The position numbers were made by a program, and so were the translations under genes. 64,000 bases of DNA from positions 124,001 to 188,000 of the forward strand of contig JAPJBO010000395.1 of NCBI GenBank assembly GCA_030068145.1. The letters run 5' to 3'. The notes beneath the pieces are model-generated. The model searched no databases and was not told the DNA's origin. It saw only the letters and a list, made by a program, of their open reading frames with translations. Source of the stretch: Diplonema papillatum. Lineage: Eukaryota; Euglenozoa; Diplonemea; Diplonemida; Diplonemidae. The stretch's first letter is position 1; every line of letters starts with the position of its first letter. Positions 1 through 64,000 of this stretch are shown piece by piece.

Positions 1-161
1 CGGCGTCTGGTCCCAAACGACGAGCACCGCTCCTGCACCCGAGTTTAGCCTTCGATGATTGGAAGCCGTATCGGAAACAGTGAGTTACCGGAAATCTGAT
101 TTCGTGCACCCGGTTGAAAGGAGTGTCCACTTCGGAGTCCACATTCACTTATGTGTAAAGT

Positions 162-226
162 TGTAGAGTACGGGAGGAACCGGAAATCTCCGGAAAGATG
201 GTACCCGCATTCCAACTCGTCTCGGG
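162..226 (+). repeat. Dispersed repeat family R4, copy 1
   Basis: About 65 bp shares the block 'ccggaaatctccgga.agatggtacccgcattccaactcgtctc' with copies at 9728-9812, 32102-32184 and (weaker) 36930-37008. The other copies carry a CT-rich end; this one has 'gtctcggg' instead. Downstream, 'ggccctgggactgcgaaggcgtgac' (about 267-291) also recurs near 37060-37083, so the family may be longer than the core. No coding capacity is seen. Confidence 0.6.
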
Positions 227-442
227 AAAGGTCAGCCGACGACCGTATGCAGGTGGGTGGAGGCCCTGGGACTGCGAAGGCGTGACCACACCCCATAAGG
301 AGGACTCTCTATCTTGCGTTATCTCTCTGTCCCAGCCGCTATAGCAACCTTATCCTCGGCCAAGCATCATCCTGCAACCCTGCTTTCAGGATTGCCATCG
401 TGCCTCTCATTTTGGTTGGGCCCCTGGTCCTGGTGGTTAGGG

Positions 443-1351
443 TTAGCATGCAAAGAGCCTGCGGCGATAATCTGCATCTGCTCTCTTTTTCTTTTTTTTT
501 TTTGGAACAACATACCACGCTGGACATGTCAGTACAAAAAAGAAAGTTGGCAGCGTTGGAACCTGCCATGTAAAGATACAAAACAGGTCCGTCGCACACA
601 CACTCTTCGTGCTACCTCTCTTCGTCACTGGCACTTTATCTTGCACCGCTGCCCGCCGCGGAGTGCACGTCTCTGTCTTCGATGATGGCGAGTCCTTACG
701 CCGCCGCTTCGTTGCAGCGGCCGTCCTAGTGTCGTCGCCTTCTGCGGCGTTCTCGATGGCGGTGTTGGCGCCAGCATCCGCCGCTTCCCTTGTGGTGCTT
801 TGGGCCGATGGTCGCAGCTTGCGTCTCGACTTCGGTGTCGCTTCGGGCGTCCCCGGGGGCGAAGGCCCGCGCTTCTGTCTCTTCGCCGCCGACTCCGCAC
901 ATCGGCATTTCGTGCTGCAGGCATCCGTGGTAGCGGCCTGGGCACGCCTACCTCCATGCGCTGGGTCTCCGCCGCCCACTAAATTTACCCTCTTCTGCCC
1001 CTTCTTGCCGGAGGTGCCGTCTTCGAAGGCCTCCCACCAGCACGTCCAATCCTACGTCCATCCCCCAGACCTCATCATTGAAGGCGTGCCTGTTCGTCCC
1101 AGCTGCGACTCGAGCACGAGCATCGTCTCTGTACCCGCACGACCTCTGGTGGAACGGTCTGCTCCCCTTGCCGCGGATCCTGTCGCTACCTGTGTCAGAC
1201 CGTGTCCACCTGTACGTCCCAGTCTGTCCTCCTCTATCTTCGTCTTCGGGGCATAGCCAAACACGGGACCGCTTTGCGCAAGGTAGAGCCCGAATAGCGT
1301 ATCCCCCTCCCCGCCTTCGCCAAGGCCGGTTGCAGGGAAAGTGGTCGCCAC
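443..1351 (-). pseudogene. Degenerate GC-rich minus-strand reading frame
   Basis: One minus-strand frame stays open from about 1351 to 443 except for a single stop (complement of about 1049-1051). The product is rich in Ala, Arg, Lys, Thr and Pro with basic stretches, as in the disordered parts of retroelement ORF1 or nuclear proteins. I recognise no domain. GC-rich sequence gives chance open frames, so this may be nothing. A similar basic low-complexity frame occurs at 30873-31121 on the + strand. Confidence 0.2.
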
Positions 1352-1472
1352 AAAGGAAATACCCCGAAACTCCCCGAATTTCCCCGATACTCCCCGATAT
1401 TTCGTCTGGACCAGGTGTCACCCATAACGAAAGCGTGAACTAAATATACAACCCGTAACCATATAGCCCTTT

Positions 1473-1640
1473 CTTGCTCTAAGAGAACCCATTCATGAAC
1501 GGTCACACGGAGCCCCTAAAACCCCGGAATTTCAAGCGAACTTTAACTCTGAAAGCATAGCCACACAAAGATAGCTCGAAAAAGCATCTGCAGAATAACA
1601 CGAAAAAGCCTCCAGGCAAACACCCGTTTTCACCTTTCTT
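1473..1640 (+). repeat. Dispersed repeat family RA, copy upstream of the first gene
   Basis: Contains the RA core: 'agagaacccattcatgaac', then 'ggtcacacgg', a C-run, and 'caagcgaactttaactct'. Related copies lie at 20059-20150, 25407-25492, 36560-36640, 38910-38970 and 39948-39990. The tail 1550-1640 ('cacaaagatagc...gcatctgcagaataacacgaaaa') recurs separately at 23240-23320. It lies 80-250 bp upstream of the ATG at 1720, so it could sit in a 5' UTR intron. Confidence 0.65.
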
Positions 1641-1719
1641 TCGCCAGGGCCTGCCCCAAAGAGAAAAAAGGGCGGGCAGGGAGACAAAAGACTCGCTCGG
1701 AAGGGGGGGGCGCGGCATC

Positions 1720-4700
1720 ATGGCACCTCCCCCTTTCAAGTGGGCGGATGCTTCTCAAGTAGCGCGTGCGCCGGTCACCCTGTTGGACCTCTGCTCCGTG
1801 CATCCGCGGCTGCAAGAGTACTATGCCCGCGCTGACAACGTCGATGAGCGTGAAATGGCGCTGAACCTGTTCATGGACACCACGCCGGAGGCTGTCGCTG
1901 TCAAGGAGCAGGTCATCAACGTGTGGCTGGAGGAAGAGTTGCTGGCCACTAACGCGGCGTGCCCGTGGACCGTCAGCACCGACGAGCCGATGGACCACAC
2001 TCTGCGGCAGACCAGGATTTTGGACCGCGGCTTGGCCGCCCCTACAGACGACTCGTACCTGCAGTCCAAGATGCACATCCAGCGCCAGTATGTTTTTTTT
2101 CGAGCTGAGAGCAACATACATAGTCGTCAACAACGGGGGAAGAAAAAGAAAAGCAGCCCGAATCGCAACAAACCCACAACTTTCCTTGAAACACCTGTTT
2201 TAAAGGAAATACTTGGAGGAAGGCTGTCGGTTGCAAACTCTCTAAAGGCGGAAACTGTGCTGTGGCCCACACGAAACCCAGTTAAATCTGGGTTTAGTGG
2301 CGGGCGTAAGCGTTCAACAAAAAGGACCACTTTGTTGTTGCATTTGCTTCTCCCCCTCGAGCCTCCTTCGTAAAAAAAAGCACAAGGCAGCCCCTCGGGT
2401 ATTTTGAGTACTTTCAATTTTGCGGGATCTTGCGAGTTGCCCCGAATAATAGAGCGTATTGCAACCCAGTACCGCACCCACAACTTTCCCGATGTAGTCA
2501 GAATAGCCACAACATTGTAGAATAGCCACAACATTGTCAGAATAGCCACAACATTGTCAGAATAGCCACAACACTGTCAGAATAGCCACAACATTGTCAG
2601 AATAGCCATTACATTGTCAGAATAGCCACAACATTGTCAGAATAGCCACAACATTGTCAGAATAGCCACAACACTGTCAGAATAGCCACAACATTGTCAG
2701 AATAGCCACAACATTGTCAGAATAGCCACAACATTGTCAGAATAGCCACAACATTGTCAGAATAGCCACAACATTGTCAGAATAGCCACAACATTGTCAG
2801 AATAGCCACAACACTGTCAGAATAGCCACAACATTGTCAGAATAGCCACAACATTGTCAGAATAGCCACAACATTGTCAGAATAGCCACAACATTGTCAG
2901 AATAGCCACAACACTGTCAGAATAGCCACAACATTGTCAGAATAGCCACAACATTGTCAGAATAGCCACAACATTGTCAGAATAGCCACAACACTGTCAG
3001 AATAGCCACAACATTGTCAGAATAGCCACAACATTGTCAGAATAGCCACAACATTGTCAGAATAGCCACAACACTGTCAGAATAGCCACAACATTGTCAG
3101 AATAGCCACAACATTGTCAGAATATAGCCACAATATTGTCAGAATAGCCACAACACTGTCAGCATAGCCACAACATTGTCAGAATAGCCACAACATTGTC
3201 AGAATAACCACAACATTTACCCACAATACGTTGTGGCTAATCTGACCACAGCGTGGGAAAGTTGCTCCTGAGCGCAACACCTCCATCTCCATTCTTCTCC
3301 GCGCCGGGAAGCTCCCGCACCGGCCCAGAGCTCAACCTTTTTTCAAAGGGAGCCGACGGCCAGAACAGGAACTTTGACGCGAAAAAAGATGGCGAGGGGG
3401 TGAGGGCCTGAGAGGGGGTAATATAGCGGGCGAGAGGGCCTGAGAGGGGGTAATATAGCGGGCGAGAGGGCCTGAGAGGGGGTAATATAGCGGGCGAGAG
3501 GGCCTGAGAGGGGGTAATATAGCGGGCGAGGTGAGGGCCTGAGAGGGAGTATTATAGCGGGCGAGAGGGCCTGAGAGGGGGTATTATAGCGGGCGAGAGG
3601 GCCTGAGAGGGGGTAATATAGCGGGCGAGAGGGCCTGAGAGGGGGTAATATAGCGGGCGAGAGGGCCTGAGAGGGGGTAATATAGCGGGCGAGAGGGCCT
3701 GAGAGGGGGTAATATAGCGGGCGAGAGGGCCTGAGAGGGAGTATTATAGCGGGCGAGGTGAGGGCCTGAGAGGGAGTATTATAGCGGGCGAGAGGGCCTG
3801 AGAGGGGGTATTATAGCGGGCGAGAGGGCCTGAGAGGGGGTATTATAGCGGGCGAGGTGAGGGCCTGAGAGGGAGTATTATAGCGGGCGAGAGGGCCTGA
3901 GAGGGGGTATTATAGCGGGCGAGAGGGCCTGAGAGGGGGTATTATAGCGGGCGAGGTGAGGGCCTGAGAGGGAGTATTATAGCGGGCGAGAGGGCCTGAG
4001 AGGGGGTATTATAGCGGGCGAGGTGAGGGCCTGAGAGGGAGTATCATAGCGGGCGAGAGGGCCTGAGAGGGGGTATTATAGCGGGCGAGGTGAGGGCCTG
4101 AGAGGGAGTATCATAGCGGGCGAGAGGGCCTGAGAGGGGGTATTATAGCGGGCGAGAGGGCCTGAGAGGGGGTATTATAGCGGGCGAGGTGAGGGCCTGA
4201 GAGGGAGTATCATAGCGGGCGAGAGGGCCTGAGAGGGGGTATTATAGCGGGCGAGAGGGCCTGAGAGGGGTAATATAGCGGGCGAGGTGAGGGCCTGAGA
4301 GGGAGTATCATAGCGGGCGAGAGGGCCTGAGAGGGGGTATTATAGCGGGCGAGAGGGCCTGAGAGGGAGTATCATAGCGGGCGAGAGGGCCTGAGAGGGG
4401 GTATTATAGCGGGCGAGAGGGCCTGAGAGGGAGTATTATAGCGGGCGAGAGGGCCTGAGAGGGGGTATTATAGCGGGCGAGAGGGCCTGAGAGGGGGTAT
4501 TATAGCGGGCGAGAGGGCCTGAGAGGGGGTAATATAGCGGGCGAGAGGGCCTGAGAGGGGGTAATATAGCGGGCGAGAGGGCCTGAGAGGGGGTATTATA
4601 GCGGGCGAGAGGGCCTGAGAGGGGGTATTATAGCGGGCGAGGTGAGGGCCTGAGAGGGAGTATTATAGCGGGCGAGAGGGCCTGAGAGGGGGTATTATAG

Positions 4701-7700
4701 CGGGCGAGAGGGCCTGAGAGGGGGTATTATAGCGGGCGAGGTGAGGGCCTGAGAGGGAGTATCATAGCGGGCGAGAGGGCCTGAGAGGGGGTATTATAGC
4801 GGGCGAGAGGGCCTGAGAGGGGGTATTATAGCGGGCGAGAGGGCCTGAGAGGGGGTATTATAGCGGGCGAGAGGGCCTGAGAGGGGGTAATATAGCGGGC
4901 GAGGTGAGGGCCTGAGAGGGAGTATCATAGCGGGCGAGAGGGCCTGAGAGGGGGTATTATAGCGGGCGAGAGGGCCTGAGAGGGGGTATTATAGCGGGCG
5001 AGAGGGCCTGAGAGGGGGTAATATAGCGGGCGAGGTGAGGGCCTGAGAGGGAGTATCATAGCGGGCGAGAGGGCCTGAGAGGGGGTATTATAGCGGGCGA
5101 GAGGGCCTGAGAGGGGGTATTATAGCGGGCGAGAGGGCCTGAGAGGGGGTATTATAGCGGGCGAGAGGGCCTGAGAGGGGGTATTATAGCGGGCGAGAGG
5201 GCCTGAGAGGGGGTAATATAGCGGGCGAGGTGAGGGCCTGAGAGGGAGGTATATTATAGCGGGCGAGAGGGCCTGAGAGGGGGTATTATAGCGGGCGAGA
5301 GGGCCTGAGAGGGGGTAATATAGCGGGCGAGGTGAGGGCCTGAGAGGGAGTATCATAGCGGGCGAGAGGGCCTGAGAGGGGGTATTATAGCGGGCGAGAG
5401 GGCCTGAGAGGGGGTATTATAGCGGGCGAGAGGGCCTGAGAGGGGGTATTATAGCGGGCGAGGTGAGGGCCTGAGAGGGAGTATCATAGCGGGCGAGAGG
5501 GCCTGAGAGGGGGTATTATAGCGGGCGAGGTGAGGGCCTGAGAGGGAGTATCATAGCGGGCGAGAGGGCCTGAGAGGGGGTAATATAGCGGGCGAGGTGA
5601 GGGCCTGAGAGGGAGTATCATAGCGGGCGAGAGGGCCTGAGAGGGGGTATTATAGCGGGCGAGAGGGCCTGAGAGGGGGTATTATAGCGGGCGAGGTGAG
5701 GGCCTGAGAGGGAGTATCATAGCGGGCGAGAGGGCCTGAGAGGGGGTATTATAGCGGGCGAGGTGAGGGCCTGAGAGGGAGTATCATAGCGGGCGAGAGG
5801 GCCTGAGAGGGGGTATTATAGCGGGCGAGAGGGCCTGAGAGGGGGTAATATAGCGGGCGAGGTGAGGGCCTGAGAGGGAGTATCATAGCGGGCGAGAGGG
5901 CCTGAGAGGGGGTATTATAGCGGGCGAGAGGGCCTGAGAGGGGGTAATATAGCGGGCGAGGTGAGGGCCTGAGAGGGAGTATTATAGCGGGCGAGAGGGC
6001 CTGAGAGGGGGTATTATAGCGGGCGAGAGGGCCTGAGAGGGGGTAATAGCGGGCGAGAGGGCCTGAGAGGGGGTATTATAGCGGGCGAGAGGGCCTGAGA
6101 GGGGGTAATATAGCGGGCGAGGTGAGGGCCTGAGAGGGAGTATCATAGCGGGCGAGAGGGCCTGAGAGGGGGTATTATAGCGGGCGAGAGGGCCTGAGAG
6201 GGGGTATTATAGCGGGCGAGGTGAGGGCCTGAGAGGGAGTATTATAGCGGGCGAGAGGGCCTGAGAGGGGGTAATATGGTATTATAGCGGGCGAGGTGAG
6301 GGCCTGAGAGGGGGTAATAGCGGGCGAGGTGAGGGCCTGAGAGGGGGTATTATAGCGGGCGAGAGGGCCTGAGAGGGGGTATTATAGCGGGCGAGAGGGC
6401 CTGAGAGGGGGTATTATAGCGGGCGAGAGGGCCTGAGAGGGGGTATTATAGCGGGCGAGGTGAGGGCCTGAGAGGGAGTATCATAGCGGGCGAGAGGGCC
6501 TGAGAGGGGGTATTATAGCGGGCGAGAGGGCCTGAGAGGGGGTATTATAGCGGGCGAGAGGGCCTGAGAGGGGGTATTATAGCGGGCGAGAGGGCCTGAG
6601 AGGGGGTAATATAGCGGGCGAGGTGAGGGCCTGAGAGGGAGTATTATAGCGGGCGAGAGGGCCTGAGAGGGGGTATTATAGCGGGCGAGAGGGCCTGAGA
6701 GGGGGTAATAGCGGGCGAGGTGAGGGCCTGAGAGGGGGTAATATAGCGGGCGAGGTGAGGGCCTGAGAGGGAGTATTATAGCGGGCGAGAGGGCCTGAGA
6801 GGGGGTATTATAGCGGGCGAGAGGGCCTGAGAGGGGGTATTATAGCGGGCGAGAGGGCCTGAGAGGGGGTAATATAGCGGGCGAGAGGGCCTGAGAGGGG
6901 GTATTATAGCGGGCGAGAGGGCCTGAGAGGGGGTATTATAGCGGGCGAGAGGGCCTGAGAGGGGGTATTATAGCGGGCGAGGTGAGGGCCTGAGAGGGGG
7001 TATTATAGCGGGCGAGAGGGCCTGAGAGGGGGTATTATAGCGGGCGAGAGGGCCTGAGAGGGGGTAATATAGCGGGCGAGGTGAGGGCCTGAGAGGGAGT
7101 ATTATAGCGGGCGAGAGGGCCTGAGAGGGGGTAATATAGCGGGCGAGGTGAGGGCCGCGCACATGTCATGCAGCCCGATCCGCGCGTGCATGCGAGTATG
7201 CGGTGTTTTTGTTCCAGTCAGTGCTGTGTAGTGGCAATCGTTGCACACGCATGCGCTTGTCGAAAGTTTTTGGGTTGGGGGAGAGAGCGAGGCAAGCGCG
7301 GAACACAACCCGCAGGAACGCGTTCTCCGTGTGGAAGAAGTCCGAAGTGCAGCGGGAGAAGAAGGACTTCGAGCAGGAGAAGAAGCAGATTCAGCACCGG
7401 CGGAAGGAGGGCCTCTCGCGGGAGCTGCAGATCGGCGCCGAGTTAGAGGGCGTCATCGTGGCGTTGAACGAGGACACCGGCTTCGGCGACGTCTTCGTCC
7501 CGGAGCGGAACGCAACGACCTCGTTCATGATCGACTGGGCGGACTACGGCCTGCGGCAGATCAGGCTGCAGGACAAGGTCAACCTGCGGATAGACGCGCC
7601 GAGGGTCATCCGGGCCGAGGCGAACGCGCCGGCGCGCAGCGTGAGGGAGAGGGCCACCTGCGTCCGGCCGATGGTGGACCGCGAGCTGACGCCGGCCGAC

Positions 7701-13700: not shown

Positions 13701-16700
13701 TGCTGCAAGAACTGCTGCGACCGCCAAGGCCACGCGAAGAAGCTGGTCCGTATCGGATCCCGAAGCCAGAGCGCACGGCTGCACCGCTACAACATCATGA
13801 ACAACGTCAAAGCGAAATTCGACCACAAGCCGAAGATGAAGAGCCTGCGGCGTGCGACGGACCTCCTCGCTGAGTCCATCCGCACTTTGGACAACGGCAA
13901 AGTGGACGCCGATTTGATCCGCACATTCTACTCCCACTCGCAACTCGAAACCTTCCTGGCCGACGGCACCAGTGACGACAAGCTACTGGAAGCAGGCTGG
14001 TCCAAATGGCTGGACGGAGGTACGCCATTAGAACACCGCACAGAGGAGCTGCAACTGTTTGGACAGTCGGGTGAACACATCATGGAGGTCGCCCTTGACC
14101 CGGATGATGTCGACGAGGCGTTCAACAAGGAGAAGGAGGCTGCTTCCCGCCTGCGCAACCAGTACATGAGCCAGCAGGCGCAGCAGCGAAGCAGCGACGA
14201 CGCGGCGGCCTCGTCGAACTTCAACTCGATGCGCACAGACGGTAAAAACTTCGAGTCCGTCGACCAGGTGTCCTCCCTGTCCTTTCCCCGAGAGTCCCTC
14301 TCCCAGTTTTCCCTCGAAGAATTATTCGCTAGTCTCCCTTCAAGAGCGTCGCTAGTTGTCCCTCGAGAGTGTTCTCTATCAATAGTGGGAGGTTTCGCGG
14401 GTTGGCCGAAGCCTCTGGGCATGGGTAGCAGGTCGCCACTGGCCCCAGACTCGAGAGAGCAAGTACACCTGTGCGACCCGACAGATGGCGTACTATGCGT
14501 GGAGAACTCTGAAAAGGTTCGCAATGATGGTTGCCTTGAAATCGCTCGTCAAAGCTAGGTACAGGAAATACAGAGCGAGGCCTCAACCTGGTACTGGTAC
14601 CCAACAACCGAGGACCTGATCCGCCAATCCTTTCAAAAGTCGTGTGATTCAATATCAACACGCAAACCAGGTACTAAGTTACGACCAGTTTCCCAATTCC
14701 AAAAGCGGCAGTACGCGAAAACCAGCTCTTGCAGAAGAAGAATAAAGCGAGGTTGGAAGTCCCTTCGCTACGCAGCACTAGAAGAAGGCTGGTGGTGGTG
14801 GGTCCCGACGGCAAATAACCAGGAAAAGAGCCGGGAAAACGTTGCTAGCTTTTAACCCTTGAACCAGCCGAAGTTGAAGTAAACTAAAAATCCAGGACTT
14901 CGTGAACAACCTGCGCTCACGGCGGGCGTTCTACAGCTCTCTTGTGCTGCAGGAGCCGGTGAACTCTCGATGCACGCGCAAGGCGACCCCGCAGGACATT
15001 GCGGCCTGCGCAGAAGGCGAGGAGGTGCCAAACTGCCTCAGGACCGGGCCGCTCATCACTCCACCTTTCGCCGACGTCGATGACCTCTGGTCGCTCTCTC
15101 GGGAGCAGCGGTGTGACCTTTTCTGTTCAGTCGTTGAGTGCCTGAAGGGGCTTTCTCCGTGTTCTGTTCAGTCGTTGGGTGCCTGAAGGGGCTTTCTCCG
15201 TGTTCTGTTCAGTCGTGTTGTATAGTTGCTAGAAGCTGGTGTTGCACGAGGCTCGCACGCCACTCCCCTGGAACACTCTGTTCACGAGCCCAACGAGGCT
15301 TACCACCCGACTTGGCAAGCGAGCCTCATTGCTTCAGGTGGATGTACACAACGACGCTGGCACGTTCTAGCGCATTCTTTTGCGTTCTGGCGTCCAATTT
15401 ACGCCCGGGCTCGCAACTGGGGCTGCGCAGGTCACGAAATCACTCCGATGCGTACCTAGCAATGCTGCCCCTAGTTGTACTACACCGATGTCTAGTTCAG
15501 CGAAGAGGGGATTGCACCCCTCGCGACAAAGCCCTGCCCACGGGCTGGCCGCGTAGAACGCGTCCACAACCGAAACCACACGAACCTATAAACAACCGAA
15601 ACCACACGAACCTACAAACAACCGAAACCACACGAACCTATAAACAACCGAAAGCACAACCTACCGCAGGCTGACACTGGCAGCCTACTGGGTGCTGCGG
15701 CACAGGGAAGGGCTGTACGAGCAGTACGAGCGACGGCGGAAGGAGTTTCAGGAACTGCTGGTGATCGACCAGTACCTCTTCGACGAGTCGCGGCTCGAAG
15801 TGCTGAGGAAGGCGGACATCATCGGGTGCACGACGACGGGGGCCGCCATGAGCCAAGCACTGCTGCGCGCGGTCAAACCGAGCGTGCTGATGGTCGAAGA
15901 GGCGGCGGAAATCCTGGAATCGCAAGTTCTCAGCTGTTTCGTCGACTCGGTCGCGCAGGTGATCCTCATCGGCGACCACAAGCAGCTGATGCCTTCGGTG
16001 GACTGCAGGGCATATGCAGAGCACAACCGGATGGAAATGTCGATGTTCCAACGACTCATCGAAACATGCCGGGCGCCCTTCTGCCAACTGACCGAGCAGC
16101 GACGAATGGTCCCCGCCATCTGCGACGTCGTCCGTCCCATCTACGACACACTCACCGACTTCCACACACTGGCCACCCGAACCATGGCATACGGCGGTGG
16201 CAAGGTCCTACGCCTCCCTGGCTTCTCGTCCGAATCCATCTTCTGGGCGCACCAGCACCCGGAAGAGGCGTCGAGTGTCGGTCTTTCGGTGGTCAACCAC
16301 AAAGAAGTGCAGATGGTGCAATGTTTGGTGCGGTTCCTCGTCTGCAAAGAGGGCCTCCGGCCCGACCAACTGACGGTGCTCACCCCATACCTGGGCCAGT
16401 CTCGAGAGCTGAAATCCGCGTTGAAAACCGAGTTCCCGACTCTTTCCGTGCTGACCGTCGACAGATTCCAGGGTGACGAAAACGACATCATCATCGTATC
16501 GTTGACCCGAACAGCGAAGCTGACCTCATTCATGAAGCTCGAGAACCGGATGTGTGTCGCCTGCTCGCGCGCCCGCTTCGGCTTCTTCCTGCTGGGCAAC
16601 CCCGAGTTGTTGACGAGGAGTCCTCACTGGCACAGGACGCTCAACATCATCCGCAACCAGTCTCCGGGTGCAGATGCCATCAGCACCAAACTGACCATGC

Positions 16701-16789
16701 ATCGTAACGGGAAACAGCTGGTCTGCTCTTCAAGCGCTGCATCTCTGCCCGACCCAAGGGACCCTTCTGTCTGGCAAGACAGGAGTTAA
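1720..16789 (+). CDS. ZNFX1: ZNFX1-like superfamily 1 RNA helicase (nine exons)
   Basis: Exons: 1720-2087, 7316-8219, 9233-9430, 11075-11242, 11774-11911, 12641-13114, 13608-14267, 14896-15110, 15670-16789. Together 4245 nt, 1414 codons plus stop; phases match at every junction. Residues about 123-425 resemble the ZNFX1 N-terminal helical region, and about 435-590 match the segment before the helicase ('DDYVGCHFNLLRADCF', 'YRDVRVVGEAVGNRGLW'). The helicase core has Walker A GPPGTGKS (686-693), motif Ia 'VVLTYKNHSLDE', a VEEAAE motif II (1117-1122), 'LIGDHKQL', 'QRRM', motif V 'VDRFQGDENDIII' and motif VI 'NRMCVACSRARFG'. ZNFX1 proteins are RNA helicases of small-RNA and antiviral pathways. 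This copy stops about 50 residues after motif VI and lacks the usual C-terminal NFX1-type zinc fingers. A Cys-rich stretch of about 30 residues is inserted after 'FLLDCLD' in exon 7. Exon 1 is the least certain part. Confidence 0.88.
2190..2410 (+). repeat. Dispersed repeat family R2, copy in helicase intron 1
   Basis: A segment of about 200 bp with landmarks 'tgtgctgtggcccacacg', 'aaatctgggtttagtggcgg', 'cttctccccctcgagcctcc' and 'gcacaaggcagcccctcg'. Near-identical sequence is at 27306-27505 (+), reverse complemented at 20833-21050, and as a 5' fragment at 8233-8300. All copies are inside introns of the helicase or PARP gene. No open frame is conserved among them. Confidence 0.8.
2481..3264. 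repeat. 20-bp minisatellite enclosed by terminal inverted repeats
   Basis: About 36 copies of agaatagccacaacattgtc fill roughly 2500-3220. Most differences are single-base (acattg versus acactg). The array is bounded by imperfect inverted repeats of about 38 bp: 'caactttcccgatgtagtca' begins at 2481, and the reverse complement of about 3222-3264 starts 'caactttcccacgctgtggt'. The inner part of each arm is itself one repeat unit. It lies inside helicase intron 1. Confidence 0.85.
3391..7156. repeat. 32/35-bp G-rich minisatellite, about 3.8 kb
   Basis: Roughly 115 tandem units, of two main lengths. The 32-bp form starts 'gagagggcctgagaggggg'; the 35-bp form has 'gaggtgagggcctgagaggg'. Each ends in 'tagcgggc', with 'taatata', 'tattata' or 'agtatcata' in the middle. 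The 35-bp form recurs after one to several 32-bp units, giving irregular higher-order structure. The whole array lies within helicase intron 1 and is the bulk of that 5228-nt intron. G-runs are all on the transcribed-sense strand. Confidence 0.95.
8845..8912 (+). repeat. Dispersed repeat family R3, short copy
   Basis: Begins after a T-run with 'agcacgtacacccttgtggg' and continues into 'ttgccctctaaagtgttgg' and 'gcatcttttggtgattggg'. This parallels 10395-10545 and 26840-27015, where the matching stretch is 'caatcttgcgggttgccctt'. More diverged than those two. In helicase intron 2. Confidence 0.45.
9728..9812 (+). repeat. Dispersed repeat family R4, copy in helicase intron 3
   Basis: Matches 32102-32184 across 'cggagagatggtccctgcac' and 'tctaactcgt', then ends in a short CT run. 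A reverse-oriented RA-like piece ('gggttttaaagtctccgggt') follows at about 9998-10030. Confidence 0.65.
10395..10545 (+). repeat. Dispersed repeat family R3, copy in helicase intron 3
   Basis: About 150 bp nearly identical to 26840-27015. Shared blocks include 'aatcttgcgggttgccctt', 'gcaggctaaaaagacgtagg', 'acagggtaaatacaagtgg' and 'aaaacgaagcgcctgtcttt'. The later copy has about 20 extra bases ('gttgatcagagttcctcacc') in the middle. Both copies are intronic and in the direction of transcription. Confidence 0.85.
10660..10910 (+). repeat. Dispersed repeat family R5 with poly(T) insert
   Basis: Aligns with 42301-42505: a purine-rich start of aag/aaag repeats, then 'ccgggtccaggaacgtgacg', 'ggcagcacagtgctacaacc' and 'ccgctctgccctgtggctga'. 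This copy carries a run of about 30 T at roughly 10743-10772 that the other lacks. A downstream piece ('tgtagcaggctttccctggc', about 10981) matches 42731-42750, so the family may extend further. Confidence 0.8.
11374..11753 (+). repeat. 187-bp tandem duplication in helicase intron 4
   Basis: Two direct copies, the second starting at 11561. Both contain 'ggacagacaaac.gcaggaagcagta', 'gggtttcagcgcatcgag', 'tgcctgaggaacatcgcctc' and 'gttagtgctataaatcaaa'. They differ by scattered substitutions and a short insertion near 11690. No conserved frame. Confidence 0.8.
15121..15655 (+). repeat. Two short tandem arrays in helicase intron 8
   Basis: At 15121-15215 a 41-bp unit starting 'ttctgttcagtcgttg' is repeated about 2.3 times. 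At 15570-15655 a 26-bp unit, 'ccgaaaccacacgaacctat' plus six bases, is repeated just over three times. The second array runs up to the 3' splice site at 15669 and forms its A/C-rich upstream sequence. Confidence 0.8.
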
Positions 16790-53888: not shown

Positions 53889-57888
<4,000 letters not shown>

Positions 57889-60800
57889 TTGTCTTGCCCA
57901 TTTTTCCCAGTTTGCCTCGAAGGCCCCCTGTACTTGGTGTACTTGGTGTACTTGGCGTGTGCTGACGCCGCCCTGGACCCGAGGAAGGAAGAGAAGCACA
58001 CCGTATCGGGCAGCACGGCAAGAATTCCGGGGGACGTGTCTCTCCCCAGGGGGGTGAACGAGAGAAGACCGAGATGGGTCGACGTGACGGTGATGAACCC
58101 CCAGGCGGCGTCGTATCGGAAGGGCGCAGCGAAGACGGTGGGCTACACCGCGCGCGTGGGCGAGGAGCTGAAACACAGGAAGTACGCGGAAGACACTAAG
58201 GATAACGACCGCCGACTCACAGCCTTCGCCATGGAGTCCTTCGGGGGTATGGGAGCGGAGGCGCGCGGGTTCCTTTTGAACGTGGCCAGCCTGGTGGCGG
58301 AACGAACCAACCAGGACAAGGCGTCGACCTACAGAGGGTATGCGGAGAGAGTGTCGATCAGGGTAGTGAGGGGAGCGGCGGCGGCCATCAACCGCAGAGG
58401 GCTGGTGGCTGACAGGAGGACGGCCGGGGTCGACCCGTCCCTCACAGACCCAGGCATGAGCGGCTTCATCGGGCCGGGGTGCCTGGACGAGGTTCAACGC
58501 AGAGTGGAAGACCTCCATGAGGAACAGGAGCTAGAGCGAGCGGGAGCGCAGACGGCAAAGGACGGCTCTACCCTCTCCGAGGTGGAGGAGGGAGGGGGGG
58601 AGAGCGAGACAGCGAGCGAGGTGGAGGAGTTCCCAGGAGACGCGCCCGGGCAGGAGCGAGGCCGGACACGGTCACCGAGCCCCCCTCCCGCGGGGGTCCA
58701 GGTACGGGCCAAGGGGGGCTGTGGAGGGGGAGGCGCCTCCGATGGGCGAAACGAGGACGAGCACATGGAAGGACAGAGCTTAGACCGTGCGGTGATGCCC
58801 CCCTCAGGGGGGCACGGGGCGGCGACCCACAAAGGGGGGCCAGAGGAGTCGGAGATCAGGGGGAGCCAAGGACACCTCTACGACGCCCTCATGCGGAGAG
58901 ACAGCAGTGGTCTCCCCGAGGGGGCGGAGCCGAAGACACCCGGGGGAGACGTCGACATGGAGGGGCCCAGCCAGGAGACGGAGCCCGCGGCCACGTCGCC
59001 GAACAGGGGGAGTGCACGCGGACCCGGTCCGTCCGGAACCACAGCACCCGCAGCCGAACGGACCCCGGCACCCGAGGAGCCCAAACCTACGCCCGAGGAG
59101 GGCCTGGGCCACGCGCTTGACGCCCCCATGCGGGGCTGCAACAGAGATTCCCCGGTCAGTTTGGAGCCCACGGCGCCCGGACCGGCCGAAGACGACGCCG
59201 GCACGGGGTGGCCTGGCAGGGAATCGACGTCCGCGACACATCGTGCCCCCAGCGACCACACTCGCCCTACCCATCCGACCGGAGCCGAAACACCTGCCAC
59301 CGAGCAAACCCCTGCACTTACCAAACCCATCATAGCAGGGGGGACCCAGGGGGGAGAGTTTCCGGGCCCTGAACGAGAGCAGTCTGGTGCCACCCGCCAC
59401 GCCGAACTTACCCCTGCATTCAGCAAACCCAACACGGCAGGGGGGGCACCGGCAGGCGAGTGGCCCATCACGACAACGCCACCGAGCCAGGGAGCCGAGG
59501 CGACCGAGGGAGGCCAGGGCGACAACCACGCCGGCCCCACGCAAGGCGGAGGCGGAGGTCCCCCGAGAGGGGTGGAACCCGGGACTCCCGGCCCATCCGA
59601 AGAAGTCGCCCGCCCGGAAGGGCTCGACCGGGGGTCGGCGCCCGCAGCCGCCACTACTCCCAGAGAACGAACCCTCCCACCCGGCCCGTCCGATACCGAA
59701 ACACCCGCCGCTGAGCGAACTCCTGCATTAGACAAACCCTACACAGCAGGAGGGACACTCCGGGAGGAGGTTCCGTGCAGCAGGGCGTCCGGGATCGAAA
59801 CGGTACGAGCTCAAGGGCCAGGTCAGCCCACGCACCCAACAGGAGGGCCCCAACCGGCCGAAGGCTCCGCTCTGCACGAGGTGCTCACCCCTGCACTTAC
59901 CATACCCAACTCAGCAGGGGGGGCACCGACACGAGGGGAGCGGCCCCACCCGCCCGGCCTGCCCGCCACCGAAACACCCGCCGCCGAGCAAACTCCGGCA
60001 CTCGACAAACCCGTCACAGCAGGAGGGGCGTTGAGGGAGGAGGCTCCGAGCGACGGGGCACCCGAAGTAGGACCGGCACGAGAGCAAGGGCAGGTCCAGC
60101 CGACGCACACGATCAGCGGGCATCACCCGTCCGTGGGCGCCACCCCCCATGCCGTGCTCCCCCCTGCATTTACCAAACCCAACACAGCAGGAGGGAGACC
60201 GACGGAAGGAGGTGAGCGGCCTCCCGGGGACGCGCCAAGCCGAAGGGCGACGACCGCGGAGGACAACGACTGGCTGCCTGGAGAGAGGGCGGAGGACAAA
60301 AGGATGGAGCCCGGGGAGTACATCGCGAGACGAGAGGAAGCAGCAAAGAGGGAGGCTGCAGACAGGGCCGCGCTCTGGAAGAAACAGAGTGGAAGATTCG
60401 CCAGGGCGTTGGAGGAAGACTCGCTGAGTTCTGTATCGGACGACGCCGACTCCCAGGCGGCGGCAGACAGAAGGAGAAGGAGAAGGAGGGCGGTAGCCCC
60501 GCGGGTCCCGGGAGCCCCCCGTGGGACTAGGGCGAAGCGTGCGAAGCAGAAAGGCGTGATAGAAGCTCCATCCCCAGGGGCAGACGGTGGTGAGGGCGGC
60601 GCCGGGCGCACATCGAACCAGAGTTGCCGGCCACGGGCCAACCCCAGCGGGGAAGGCGCACGCCACGCCCCCCCGGCCTCAGCAGCGGCAGACTCCACAC
60701 ACAATAGCCAGGCCTGGGGGTGGCAGGAGAACCTTTCGACCACCAACTCGTGCTACCTGCAAGCGGCCTTGAACCTGATTGCGGTCACTGACATGGCACA

Positions 60801-62994
60801 GCAGGTTATGGTCTACCAGGGGTGCGGTACGCATGAGAAAGGCGGGCTTACCGCGGCAGTCCACAGGTGGGTGACAGGGGAGCGGTCAGCCGCGGCACTG
60901 CTGTCGGTATTTGCGAACATCTCAGGCCCGTTTGGTGATGGACGACAATGTGATTTGGGAGAGGTCCTGCGAACAGTCGCCACCACAGTCCAGGAAGAGA
61001 ACGCCGCCCACCGGGCCTGCAACACTCGGCAGACAGACCGGATCGCGGGCCTAGGGCACAGGTACACGGTCGATGTCAGGTGCGGGAAGTGCCAGGCTGG
61101 CCACACTGCCCACGAGGACCTTGACACAACCATCCTCCCCGTGAGGGCCGGGACGCTACAGGAGGGCTTAGACGAAGCGTTCTCGTGGTCCTCGGCGGGG
61201 GAGGACTACAGGTGCGTGAGTTGCGGGACCAGGGGGGAGTCCCAGACCAAGCCCTCCTTCAGTCGAGCCGGCACAACGGTGCTTATCCAACTGCAGAGGG
61301 CACGCCCCTTTGGAGGCACAGACAGGAGAGCAGTAGCCGCGGACGTTGCGATAACCCTGCCAGGCCTAGGCAAACGACTGAGACTCGTGGCAGTGGTGAC
61401 GCACACAGGAGAGAACAATGCAGGCCACTACATAGTGCACGCGCACAACGAGCATGCCGAGAGGGGTCAGAGGTGGACAATGCTCGACGGGATGAACACG
61501 AGCTTTTCAACCGCGCCGAGGTATGAAGACACAGACACCTTTCTCTTTGCATACCAGCCGACCCTTGAGCAACCCGAGGCGCTAGGCGACACCAGGGACG
61601 CAGCGCCCCTCGGCTCGGCAAGCCAAGACATACCGGAAGCCGGGGAGGCCGACAATGGCAACAGAGAAGGCGGTGGAGTGGGGGCGCAGGGAGCTACGCG
61701 CCCGCGCCACCCGCAGCCGGAGGCACCGACAGGAGACCCCGAGGTTTACCCAGAACACCCCGGCCGCTCCCCGAGTGACGCGATGAGAAGCCCCGCAGAC
61801 ACGGGGGCGGGGCCAGCAGAGGCAACGGCCAGCGAAGGCCACAGCCCCGTCGTGACCGCGCCAAAGGCCACAACGCAGAGCACACCCCAACGCACGAGCG
61901 AGACCGAGGGTGGGCACGGGCCAGCGAACAGTGGGACCAGCGACGAGGGGCCGAGCTCCGAGGAGTACCTTGCAAGGTTCGAAGAAGCAACAAGGAGATT
62001 GGCGGCGGGCAGAGCCCCGCAGGAGGGGAAGCTCGAAGCTGAGGCCGCCGGGGACGACGAAAAGGACTCGTTGAGCTCAGAGTCAGACGAGCCCAACTCC
62101 CTATCGACAGGCCCGAGGACTGTCACAGCGGCAAGGGGCATGGGAGTAGGGGATGGACAGGGAGGGCAGGCCTTTCACGTGACACCCCCCGACACACCCC
62201 GGACTCCTGAACCCGAAACGGCGCAAGAGTCGGCGGCGAGGCCAGGCACCTCGGGGCCGGATGGCCAGGCCGGCGACCCAGGAGCGGAGCTGTTCCCTGC
62301 GAGGGGAGTTCCTGACATGGATGCAGAGGAGGGCATTGCTTTCCGGCTTGCGGGCGTGCGGAGGAAGAGAGACGCGGACTCGGCATGCGATGAGGGAGGC
62401 GAGGACGAGCCCCCAGGGCCAACCCGGGGAATAACAAAGAAGGCCAGGGGACCGAAGTACGCATGGGACGTGGTGACACCCCCGGAGCTAGAGGACAGGT
62501 TCCCAATCTCGCTACACAGGAAGGCGGGGCAGGGGAGAGTGGCGGACGAGTGGGGATGGGCGGCCCTTAACTGGCTGGCAGTCGCACACGGGCGGCGGAG
62601 GGTGCCCTTCGCCCAGTTGTTCAGGATCCAGATGTGGCTAGCATGGGAGCGCCGCAGGTCCTCGGACTTCGAGACACCCATAGACGAGCAGCTCGCACTG
62701 CGAGGGAGGTGCACAGCGGAAACACTGACGGTGGCGGCTCGCGACCTTCTGGGCATCATCCTCCTCAGGGGGAAACCGCCTCGAAAGTACCCCCCGGGGA
62801 GGTGGTCTGCCCTCCTGGGGACGTTGCAAGACGGGGAGGAGGGCCAATGGAAGTATGCCAGGGCACACCCGAAAGGGAAGGGGATCCTGTTCATGGACAC
62901 CGAGGCAGGAGAAAGCCGCCAGGACCCCGCATGGCACGAGCTCGACGCGGTCTACACGACTTTGTACGCCCAGGTCCCGCTGCCGCTAAAATGA
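57889..62994 (+). CDS. LINE polyprotein: RLE endonuclease end, proline-rich region, USP protease, unknown C-terminal domain
   Basis: One frame, about 1701 codons from 57889; the true start is lost by 5' truncation. Residues about 45-150 match the end of a restriction-like endonuclease: 'IPGDVSLPRG', 'WVDVTVMNPQAASY', 'ELKHRKYAED', 'FAMESFGGMGAEARG'. Residues 225-930 are Pro/Glu/Gly-rich with about seven imperfect 'TPA..TPAL.KP..AGG' repeats, then an acidic SLSSVSDD block and an Arg/Lys run. A USP-type deubiquitinase follows. Its Cys box is NSCYLQAA (C955) and its His box 'ENNAGHYIVHAHNE' (H1180) with 'WTMLDG'. A zinc ribbon of C-x2-C plus C-x2-C lies between them, as in cellular USPs. A second 'EEYLAR...DSLSSESDE' block precedes a last domain ('GWAALNWLAVAHGRRR', 'KGKGILFMD') that I do not recognise. 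The protein presumably processes itself or removes ubiquitin from the retrotransposon or host proteins; that is inference. Confidence 0.85.
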   Translation: MSCPFFPVCLEGPLYLVYLVYLACADAALDPRKEEKHTVSGSTARIPGDVSLPRGVNERRPRWVDVTVMNPQAASYRKGAAKTVGYTARVGEELKHRKYAEDTKDNDRRLTAFAMESFGGMGAEARGFLLNVASLVAERTNQDKASTYRGYAERVSIRVVRGAAAAINRRGLVADRRTAGVDPSLTDPGMSGFIGPGCLDEVQRRVEDLHEEQELERAGAQTAKDGSTLSEVEEGGGESETASEVEEFPGDAPGQERGRTRSPSPPPAGVQVRAKGGCGGGGASDGRNEDEHMEGQSLDRAVMPPSGGHGAATHKGGPEESEIRGSQGHLYDALMRRDSSGLPEGAEPKTPGGDVDMEGPSQETEPAATSPNRGSARGPGPSGTTAPAAERTPAPEEPKPTPEEGLGHALDAPMRGCNRDSPVSLEPTAPGPAEDDAGTGWPGRESTSATHRAPSDHTRPTHPTGAETPATEQTPALTKPIIAGGTQGGEFPGPEREQSGATRHAELTPAFSKPNTAGGAPAGEWPITTTPPSQGAEATEGGQGDNHAGPTQGGGGGPPRGVEPGTPGPSEEVARPEGLDRGSAPAAATTPRERTLPPGPSDTETPAAERTPALDKPYTAGGTLREEVPCSRASGIETVRAQGPGQPTHPTGGPQPAEGSALHEVLTPALTIPNSAGGAPTRGERPHPPGLPATETPAAEQTPALDKPVTAGGALREEAPSDGAPEVGPAREQGQVQPTHTISGHHPSVGATPHAVLPPAFTKPNTAGGRPTEGGERPPGDAPSRRATTAEDNDWLPGERAEDKRMEPGEYIARREEAAKREAADRAALWKKQSGRFARALEEDSLSSVSDDADSQAAADRRRRRRRAVAPRVPGAPRGTRAKRAKQKGVIEAPSPGADGGEGGAGRTSNQSCRPRANPSGEGARHAPPASAAADSTHNSQAWGWQENLSTTNSCYLQAALNLIAVTDMAQQVMVYQGCGTHEKGGLTAAVHRWVTGERSAAALLSVFANISGPFGDGRQCDLGEVLRTVATTVQEENAAHRACNTRQTDRIAGLGHRYTVDVRCGKCQAGHTAHEDLDTTILPVRAGTLQEGLDEAFSWSSAGEDYRCVSCGTRGESQTKPSFSRAGTTVLIQLQRARPFGGTDRRAVAADVAITLPGLGKRLRLVAVVTHTGENNAGHYIVHAHNEHAERGQRWTMLDGMNTSFSTAPRYEDTDTFLFAYQPTLEQPEALGDTRDAAPLGSASQDIPEAGEADNGNREGGGVGAQGATRPRHPQPEAPTGDPEVYPEHPGRSPSDAMRSPADTGAGPAEATASEGHSPVVTAPKATTQSTPQRTSETEGGHGPANSGTSDEGPSSEEYLARFEEATRRLAAGRAPQEGKLEAEAAGDDEKDSLSSESDEPNSLSTGPRTVTAARGMGVGDGQGGQAFHVTPPDTPRTPEPETAQESAARPGTSGPDGQAGDPGAELFPARGVPDMDAEEGIAFRLAGVRRKRDADSACDEGGEDEPPGPTRGITKKARGPKYAWDVVTPPELEDRFPISLHRKAGQGRVADEWGWAALNWLAVAHGRRRVPFAQLFRIQMWLAWERRRSSDFETPIDEQLALRGRCTAETLTVAARDLLGIILLRGKPPRKYPPGRWSALLGTLQDGEEGQWKYARAHPKGKGILFMDTEAGESRQDPAWHELDAVYTTLYAQVPLPLK

Positions 62995-63206
62995 GGCACG
63001 AGCCCCTGAACCAACGGGGGGAGCCCATTGGCCCACCCCCACCCCCAAACCTGGCGCACTCCCCTCCCCATCCCTCGACCCCAAACCCCCCCCGCTCCCT
63101 CTCCCACAAACACAAAACCCAACCCCCCCACCTCCCCACCCCCACCCTACCCCTCACTCTCCCCGCACTCGCCCTTGTCTCTCTCACCCTCCACCGCACA
63201 CACACA

Positions 63207-63284
<78 letters not shown>

Positions 63285-63925
63285 AACACCCTCTCTCCCA
63301 CACTGTCTCACACCCTCCCTCACTCACTTTCACTCTTACTGTCACTCTGTCTCTCTCACAATCTCTCTCCCCCGTTTATTTCTTTTACCGTTCATATTTC
63401 TTTTACCATTCACCCTTCCCATCCCCACCCGTTTCCTTTCAGTTCTCCGTCCCTCCCTTCCGCCCCTACCAGCAAGGTATGCCCTTTCTTGTTTGCCACA
63501 GGGTATGCTGTTTTCTTTTGTTTTCGTGGCCAAGAAGCCACTCAAAGGTTTGCGGTTTTCTCTTGTTCACCCACAACCCCCCTCACCATGCAACCAGCAA
63601 AAACACAAACAGGCCCAAAAAAAAAAAAAGAAACAACAATGCGAGGTGGCTTGCCACCGCGAATCGAAGAGGGCAGGTGGTCCGCCACCAAAGATGATAC
63701 AGCCCTGATAGAATAGAGTGAAACCTGTTTGTGTCTTTGTGGTGAACCGTTTTGCTTCGCTGGGGTGAATAAGAGAAAAGGGGCTTGAGGACGGACGCAA
63801 GCGCGGGGCCCCAGCAACACAGAACACCGTCCTCATCCGCTTGCTTCCCGTTCGCTTCCCATTTGCTTGATTTTTATTTACTTATGGTGTTCTGTGTCCC
63901 TACCTGCCTTGTCTCTCGAGAGCCC

Positions 63926-64000
<75 letters not shown>
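57950..64000 (+). mobile_element. 5'-truncated LINE with poly(A) tail, running off the window
   Basis: The element spans the endonuclease remnant at about 57950, the ORF, a 3' UTR of about 935 nt (62995-63929) with a (CT)n run at 63209-63283, and a poly(A) run from 63930 to the window end (at least 71 nt). A pure long A tail indicates a recent insertion. The 5' break is estimated from where RLE similarity begins; the usual upstream CCHC motif and reverse transcriptase are missing. No target-site duplication can be checked because the 3' flank is outside the window. Confidence 0.8.
62995..64000 (+). other. 3' UTR and poly(A) tail of the USP-bearing LINE
   Basis: C/T-rich, with (CA)5 then (CT)n at 63199-63283 and an A12 run near 63617. 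A 16-nt pair 'gtggcttgccaccgcg'/'ggtggtccgccacc' can form small hairpins at 63644-63692. Poly(A) starts at 63930 after 'gagcccctttaa'. No AATAAA precedes the tail closely. Confidence 0.75.

What the first reader, a model, noticed from the sequence alone, without database searches (positions are those of the whole stretch)
57889..62994. A LINE polyprotein that carries a complete-looking USP deubiquitinase
Seen: the same uninterrupted frame holds the end of a restriction-like endonuclease (WVDVTVMNP, KHRKY) and, about 800 residues later, a USP domain with Cys box NSCYLQAA, zinc-ribbon Cys pairs and His box GHYIVHAH. Known: some non-LTR elements (for example Dualen/RandI) carry OTU-type cysteine proteases. 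I am not aware of a USP-family enzyme in a LINE, though I cannot search. Inference: the element may counter ubiquitin-dependent turnover of its proteins, or cleave its own polyprotein.
Basis: partly seen in the sequence, partly recalled or inferred. Interest (0 to 1): 0.92.

Follow-up and report, generated by a model that had tools for sequence, protein, structure and literature searches.

The report
Jumping gene carries two deubiquitinases
A retrotransposon in the marine flagellate Diplonema encodes, in one giant protein with its copying and cutting enzymes, a complete-looking ubiquitin-removing enzyme that is under selection and shared with a different kind of jumping gene, which suggests that these elements counter or exploit the cell's ubiquitin system.

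The parts
57889..57945 (+). Flanking sequence read in frame (19 codons); not part of the element
   Evidence: Match to the full LINE protein P0002 begins at 57946
57946..62994 (+). Element-derived C-terminal part of the polyprotein ORF (1,682 aa plus stop); 5'-truncated copy
   Evidence: 99.6% identical to P0002 residues 643-2324
57946..58449 (+). End of the restriction-like endonuclease region: PGD-x(15)-D at 58027-58083, KHRKY at 58171-58185
   Evidence: 57.7% identical to P0004 over this stretch; codons read; CCHC followed by the P(x)D...D motif in 32 of 120 relatives, 0 of 120 shuffled
58450..60720 (+). Low-complexity acidic/Pro/Gly-rich linker with six TPAL/F-type repeat motifs
   Evidence: Sequence, motif positions; no significant alignment to P0004 here
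60739..61497 (+). USP/UCH catalytic domain (profile match); modelled as 60706-61605
   Evidence: PF00443, 39.3 bits against cut-off 23.9 on the cut domain; AF2 pLDDT 78.3, pTM 0.78; the 50 PDB entries listed are USPs, Z to 23.9
60751..60753 (+). Catalytic Cys codon
   Evidence: Invariant in 15 of 15 LINE and PLE USPs; codon checked
61081..61092 (+). Zinc-ribbon Cys pair 1 (CxxC)
   Evidence: Both Cys columns invariant in 15 of 15
61213..61224 (+). Zinc-ribbon Cys pair 2 (CxxC here)
   Evidence: Both Cys columns invariant in 15 of 15, but the five rows of the second PLE USP type have CxC, aligned with a gap
61426..61428 (+). Catalytic His codon
   Evidence: Invariant in 15 of 15; codon checked
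61486..61488 (+). Catalytic Asp codon
   Evidence: Invariant in 15 of 15; codon checked
61606..62991 (+). C-terminal tail, function unknown
   Evidence: No Pfam match listed for 61579-62991 at E up to 1
62995..63929 (+). 3' UTR of the element
   Evidence: 63640-63930 has 40 scored matches in the genome, of 152 candidates
63930..64000 (+). Poly(A) tail, 86 A in all, running 15 bases past the window end
   Evidence: contig C395, L051

Best explanation
This is the 3' part of an apparently recently mobile RLE LINE whose single polyprotein carries an active-looking USP deubiquitinase behind the endonuclease. Shown by computation: the domain is a USP with intact catalytic and zinc residues, it is fused in frame behind RT and RLE, it recurs in many dispersed copies, it is kept by purifying selection, and long copies also carry an N-terminal OTU protease and AlkB-like oxygenase. 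Inferred: the polyprotein, or the RNP it forms, uses the USP (and the OTU) in cis to strip ubiquitin from its own RT/RLE and RNA complex, so escaping proteasomal turnover or ubiquitin-triggered restriction; removal of ubiquitin from chromatin or PCNA at the insertion site is the next-best target.
For: USP. Same frame as RT: P0002, L052. OTU and USP in the same open frame at 13 loci, plus one partial; AlkB, OTU and USP at 8 of these. Selection: dN/dS at most 0.28 in 13 of 14 computable pairs, which share sequences and so are not independent. Mobility: 16 distinct 3' flanks among the 20 copies with a readable flank, after poly(A) of 10-86 A. Two unlike deubiquitinase folds in one protein, both with catalytic Cys and His kept, argue that handling ubiquitin is the point. 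A USP Cys box also lies behind RT in a separate LINE clade, 10 of 10.
Against: No activity was measured; ubiquitin rather than a ubiquitin-like modifier is assumed. No substrate is known. Expression was not tested. OTU is below the Pfam cut-off in L076 (20.2 against 23.3), above it in L052 (25.7). One of 14 pairs (L071/L074, very few changes) has dN/dS 0.63, and two further pairs were saturated. In the separate LINE clade a His box was found behind the Cys box in only 7 of 10; some of these proteins end early. Near-identical copies on short contigs may partly be assembly redundancy.
Confidence: 0.55

Rival explanations
1. The USP (with the OTU) processes the polyprotein itself, releasing RT-RLE from the flanking parts, as papain-like viral proteases do.
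For: The frame is very long for one working protein: 3,745 codons from the first Met read to the stop in C2428, up to 4,088 stop to stop; protease domains sit on both sides of RT-RLE.
Against: No ubiquitin domain found by Pfam in L052 or L076; LxGG sites 4 against 3.1 expected in L052, 1 against 1.8 in L076, 0 against 2.0 in P0002. No 2A motif in the USP-bearing loci scanned.
Confidence: 0.12
2. The USP removes ubiquitin from chromatin or replication proteins (H2A/H2B, PCNA) at the nicked target, to open the site or damp repair signalling during integration.
Against: Fold likeness does not give substrate; no direct data.
Confidence: 0.2
3. The USP is a passively captured host domain with no catalytic use, kept as a fold or as a ubiquitin binder.
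For: Host-like USPs are common in this genome; the linkers around the domain are repetitive and do not align between families.
Against: Catalytic Cys, His, Asp and zinc Cys invariant to 22% identity; dN/dS 0.10-0.28 in 13 of 14 pairs.
Confidence: 0.08
4. It is a host USP gene next to, or wrongly fused with, a LINE fragment.
For: P0123 and P0125, two related Penelope-like proteins, are annotated as 'putative ubiquitin carboxyl-terminal hydrolase 16'.
Against: One uninterrupted frame with RT in P0002 and L052; dispersed copies with different 3' flanks; the tree sets these USPs apart from the 16 host USPs used, though weakly (83/92).
Confidence: 0.02

Closest known systems
NeSL and Utopia RLE LINEs of nematodes (Ulp1-like cysteine protease)
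   Same: RLE LINE with a ubiquitin-family cysteine protease in the polyprotein (PMC4640811, passages seen)
   Different: Ulp1/C48 fold at the N-terminus; here a USP/C19 domain C-terminal to the RLE, plus OTU and AlkB in longer copies
Dualen/RandI LINEs and Helentrons with OTU protease
   Different: I know of no USP in those (recall); here OTU and USP are together, and no APE domain was matched in L052 or L076
SLACS/CRE-type RLE LINEs of trypanosomatids
   Same: Annotated name of the closest protein ('Retrotransposable element SLACS 132 kDa protein'); RT-CCHC-RLE order
   Different: Copies of the window's family lie in different flanks; extra AlkB, OTU and USP domains; clade not tested against reference CRE elements
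Penelope-like elements with N-terminal GIY-YIG
   Same: Diplonema elements with this layout (L053, L054, L055, L079 with L064) end in a USP, one group being kin of the LINE's USP
   Different: Different RT and endonuclease; PLE assignment rests on GIY-YIG and recalled RT motifs
Human USP46, USP12, USP1, USP2
   Different: About 17% identity; host enzymes, not part of mobile elements

Membership tests
USP deubiquitinases (peptidase C19, PF00443) | Profile match above curated cut-off | tested here: met
   31.6 bits (whole frame), 39.3 (domain), cut-off 23.9
USP deubiquitinases (peptidase C19, PF00443) | Catalytic Cys, His and Asp/Asn boxes | tested here: met
   C16, H241, D261 invariant in 15 of 15 rows; their catalytic roles by analogy (recalled)
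USP deubiquitinases (peptidase C19, PF00443) | USP fold | tested here: met
USP deubiquitinases (peptidase C19, PF00443) | Hydrolysis of ubiquitin conjugates | not testable with these tools
   needs an assay
RLE-type non-LTR retrotransposon | RT of non-LTR type | tested here: met
   RVT_1 71.9 bits in L052; best PDB sequence matches are R2 proteins, E 1.3e-8
RLE-type non-LTR retrotransposon | CCHC followed by restriction-like endonuclease motif | tested here: met
   Same arrangement in 32 of 120 relatives (near-copies among them), 0 of 120 shuffled; the pattern was written after reading some of the sequences. No curated RLE profile was matched; motif recalled
RLE-type non-LTR retrotransposon | 5' truncation and 3' poly(A) at varied sites | tested here: met
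CRE/SLACS clade | Groups with trypanosomatid SLACS/CRE in an RT tree | not tested
   No reference SLACS/CRE sequence in the tree; the label is the source's annotation
CRE/SLACS clade | Insertion at a fixed site in spliced-leader genes | tested here: not met
   16 distinct 3' flanks among 20 readable; no spliced-leader sequence was compared
OTU proteases (PF02338) | Profile, fold, catalytic Cys and His | tested here: met
AlkB-like 2OG-Fe(II) oxygenases (PF13532) | Profile match above cut-off | tested here: met
   44.1 against 31.2 in L076
Penelope-like elements (L053, L054, L055, L079) | GIY-YIG endonuclease with PLE-type RT | tested here: inconclusive
   GIY-YIG 22.9 in L054 (cut-off 22.6), 22.4 in L053, 16.4 in L055, 15.6 in L079; RT assigned by recalled motifs only

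The most novel reading that the evidence does not exclude
Diplonema retroelements carry an exchangeable counter-defence kit. A USP cassette has passed between RLE LINEs and Penelope-like elements, and an AlkB cassette between RLE LINEs and APE LINEs, so that one LINE protein combines AlkB, OTU and USP, a set that recalls some plant RNA viruses with AlkB and OTU (recalled). This would mean that the host restricts retroelements by ubiquitination and by nucleic-acid methylation, and that the elements answer with deubiquitinases and a demethylase.
Probability: 0.35. Interest if true: 0.93.

Novelty: new variant of a known kind. Interest (0 to 1): 0.82.

Why it matters
Ubiquitin-family proteases in LINEs were known to me as single Ulp1 or OTU domains. 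A USP, together with an OTU in the same chain, and a related USP in a second retroelement type, makes ubiquitin handling look like a recurrent need of retrotransposons and gives a clean catalytic-mutant test of it. [quoted passage not shown] not checked gene by gene).

Tried and rejected
Considered and rejected: separate host gene (single frame, dispersed copies); chance match (135 of 136 scored genomic matches have no stop inside); pseudogene (dN/dS). Self-processing was tested by LxGG counts and not supported.

Direction of the USP exchange: the first tree put the LINE USPs inside the PLE USPs (98/99 for LINE plus L061), but the AU test does not reject the PLE USPs of that type as one clade (p 0.544), so the direction is open. 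Origin of the TE USPs from a particular host USP: no donor found; the split from host USPs has weak support (83/92), with long branches and an unsettled bootstrap.

Rows dropped: 7 near-duplicate TE rows and 10 of 27 host extracts were left out, and L042 was moved from host to PLE by its sequence, its RT not being checked; P0086 was not put in. In one search, 64 of 89 usable RT rows (120 with a match) were used: the USP rows and OTU rows that qualified, and the 45 best others. One search printed '+' flanks in the wrong orientation; one search replaces it. Of the 22 ends looked at, L080 ran off its contig and L085 had no poly(A) at that place. Notebook entry 2 counts about 45 host USPs among the rows and entry 5 counts 12 of 13 dN/dS pairs; the better counts are about 36 rows and 13 of 14 pairs.

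Not answered: a genome count with the high-copy PLE USP. The paper on PLEs with permuted domains could not be read (not held). Pfam and NCBIfam scans of distant PLE relatives gave nothing that names them.

Full report
The frame. The window's frame 57889-62994 (+) is open for 1,701 codons. Its best relative is P0002, a 2,324-residue protein of Diplonema papillatum annotated 'Retrotransposable element SLACS 132 kDa protein', with RT (PF00078) and UCH (PF00443) in one chain and 38 member sequences. The window matches P0002 residues 643-2324 at 99.6% from 57946 on. So the window copy is 5'-truncated inside the polyprotein, the 19 codons before 57946 are flank, and the copy ends in a 3' UTR and 86 A. 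The window is contig C395:124001-188000 of a 271-Mb unnamed assembly; near-identity to D. papillatum entries makes that species the likely source.

Mobility. Of 22 copies looked at, 20 give at least 25 readable flank bases after a poly(A); they show 16 distinct flanks, with tails of 10-86 A. One ran off its contig and one had no poly(A). That is what target-primed insertion at many sites would leave, and it does not fit one fixed target.

A related USP in another retroelement type. L055 and L079 have a GIY-YIG-like stretch (below cut-off) and an RT that Pfam RVT_1 does not match. L055 ends in a USP, and the USP of L079's element is L064; USPs of this type are 45-49% identical to the window's. 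L053 and L054 have the same layout with a more canonical USP (74-82 bits), 22-26% identical to the window's. I call these Penelope-like from GIY-YIG (at cut-off only in L054) and recalled RT motifs. In the PF00443 search of the genome, 112 of 149 scored rows look, by match length and profile range, like these last two families; only L053 and L054 were read in full. LINE USPs form one group next to or within the first PLE type (100/100 for the joint group); direction is unresolved (AU p 0.544). P0129, from an unnamed contig, has a related RT (42% identity over 81% of the query) and a UCH domain of 56.8 bits; Pfam listed no GIY-YIG there.

Wider occurrence. Of 120 listed proteins related to the RT half (122 found), 12 have PF00443. 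In a quick RT tree ten of them (P0056, P0066, P0067, P0070, P0075, P0077, P0079, P0081, P0082, P0086) form one clade, each with a USP Cys box behind the RT. An RLE-like motif lies before that box in 9 of 10, and a His box behind it was found in 7 of 10 (not in P0066, P0082, P0086). The Diplonema rows and P0011 lie elsewhere in that tree. Nine of the ten were in the USP tree and did not come out as one group, so the domain may have been gained or replaced more than once. Of eight long relatives scanned, OTU is above cut-off in P0007 and below it in P0006, P0009, P0017 and P0018; P0008, P0010 and P0013 had none listed.

Literature. [quoted passage not shown] Utopia/NeSL elements carry Ulp1 (PMC4640811, passages), Helentrons OTU (PMC6431247, 12 of 22 places seen). 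For PLEs I saw passages of PMC11167929 and PMC3846280. Nine searches of open-access full text listed no title or abstract start that reports a USP in a LINE or PLE; one search listed 15 of 174 papers, and (retrotransposon, deubiquitin*, restriction-like endonuclease) returned 0. Subscription papers and Repbase were not searched, so a paywalled or database entry is possible.

Mechanism. Shown: domain, fold, catalytic residues, selection, frame, copies. Inferred: that the enzyme acts on ubiquitin, that it acts in cis on the element's own RNP, and that this protects it. Two unlike deubiquitinase folds on either side of RT-RLE in one polyprotein, and such domains in other LINEs, fit counter-defence better than self-processing, for which there is no ubiquitin unit found and no clear excess of LxGG.

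Noticed in passing
L116 (C1887:14701-21400), 157-6132 +: APE-type LINE (Exo_endo_phos 35.2, RVT_1 68.1) with an N-terminal AlkB domain (46.5 bits) followed by a 2A-like GDIEQNPGP motif; its AlkB is 80% identical to that of the RLE LINE although the elements are otherwise different. Frames of about 1,992-2,007 codons recur among the 150 scored AlkB places; only this one was read.
   Followed up: partly
window 59308-60195: Six copies of a TPAL/FxKPxxAGG-type motif in the RLE-USP linker, with varied spacers.
   Followed up: no
L051 after the poly(A) of the window copy (C395 from 188016): By eye, another LINE-type RT fragment follows close behind, so the copy may lie beside or within an older LINE.
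   Followed up: no
P0004 against P0002: RT-RLE 57% identical but a 130-residue USP part 91.5% identical: the 3' part seems to have been exchanged between diverged LINE families; P0004 is a gene model, and L057/L056 show the same USP type.
   Followed up: partly
3' flanks: 15 of 20 flanks (three sets repeat) begin with G right after the poly(A), a possible nick-site preference.
   Followed up: no
window 54293-55927 and 55983-56383: RNase H-like ORF (RVT_3 31.0 bits) of another retroelement, then a (CA)n tract of about 400 bases with an interruption at 56168.
   Followed up: no
window 15692-16789: ORF with an AAA_12 helicase match (111.9 bits), perhaps a UPF1-like host gene or fragment (recalled likeness).
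   Followed up: no
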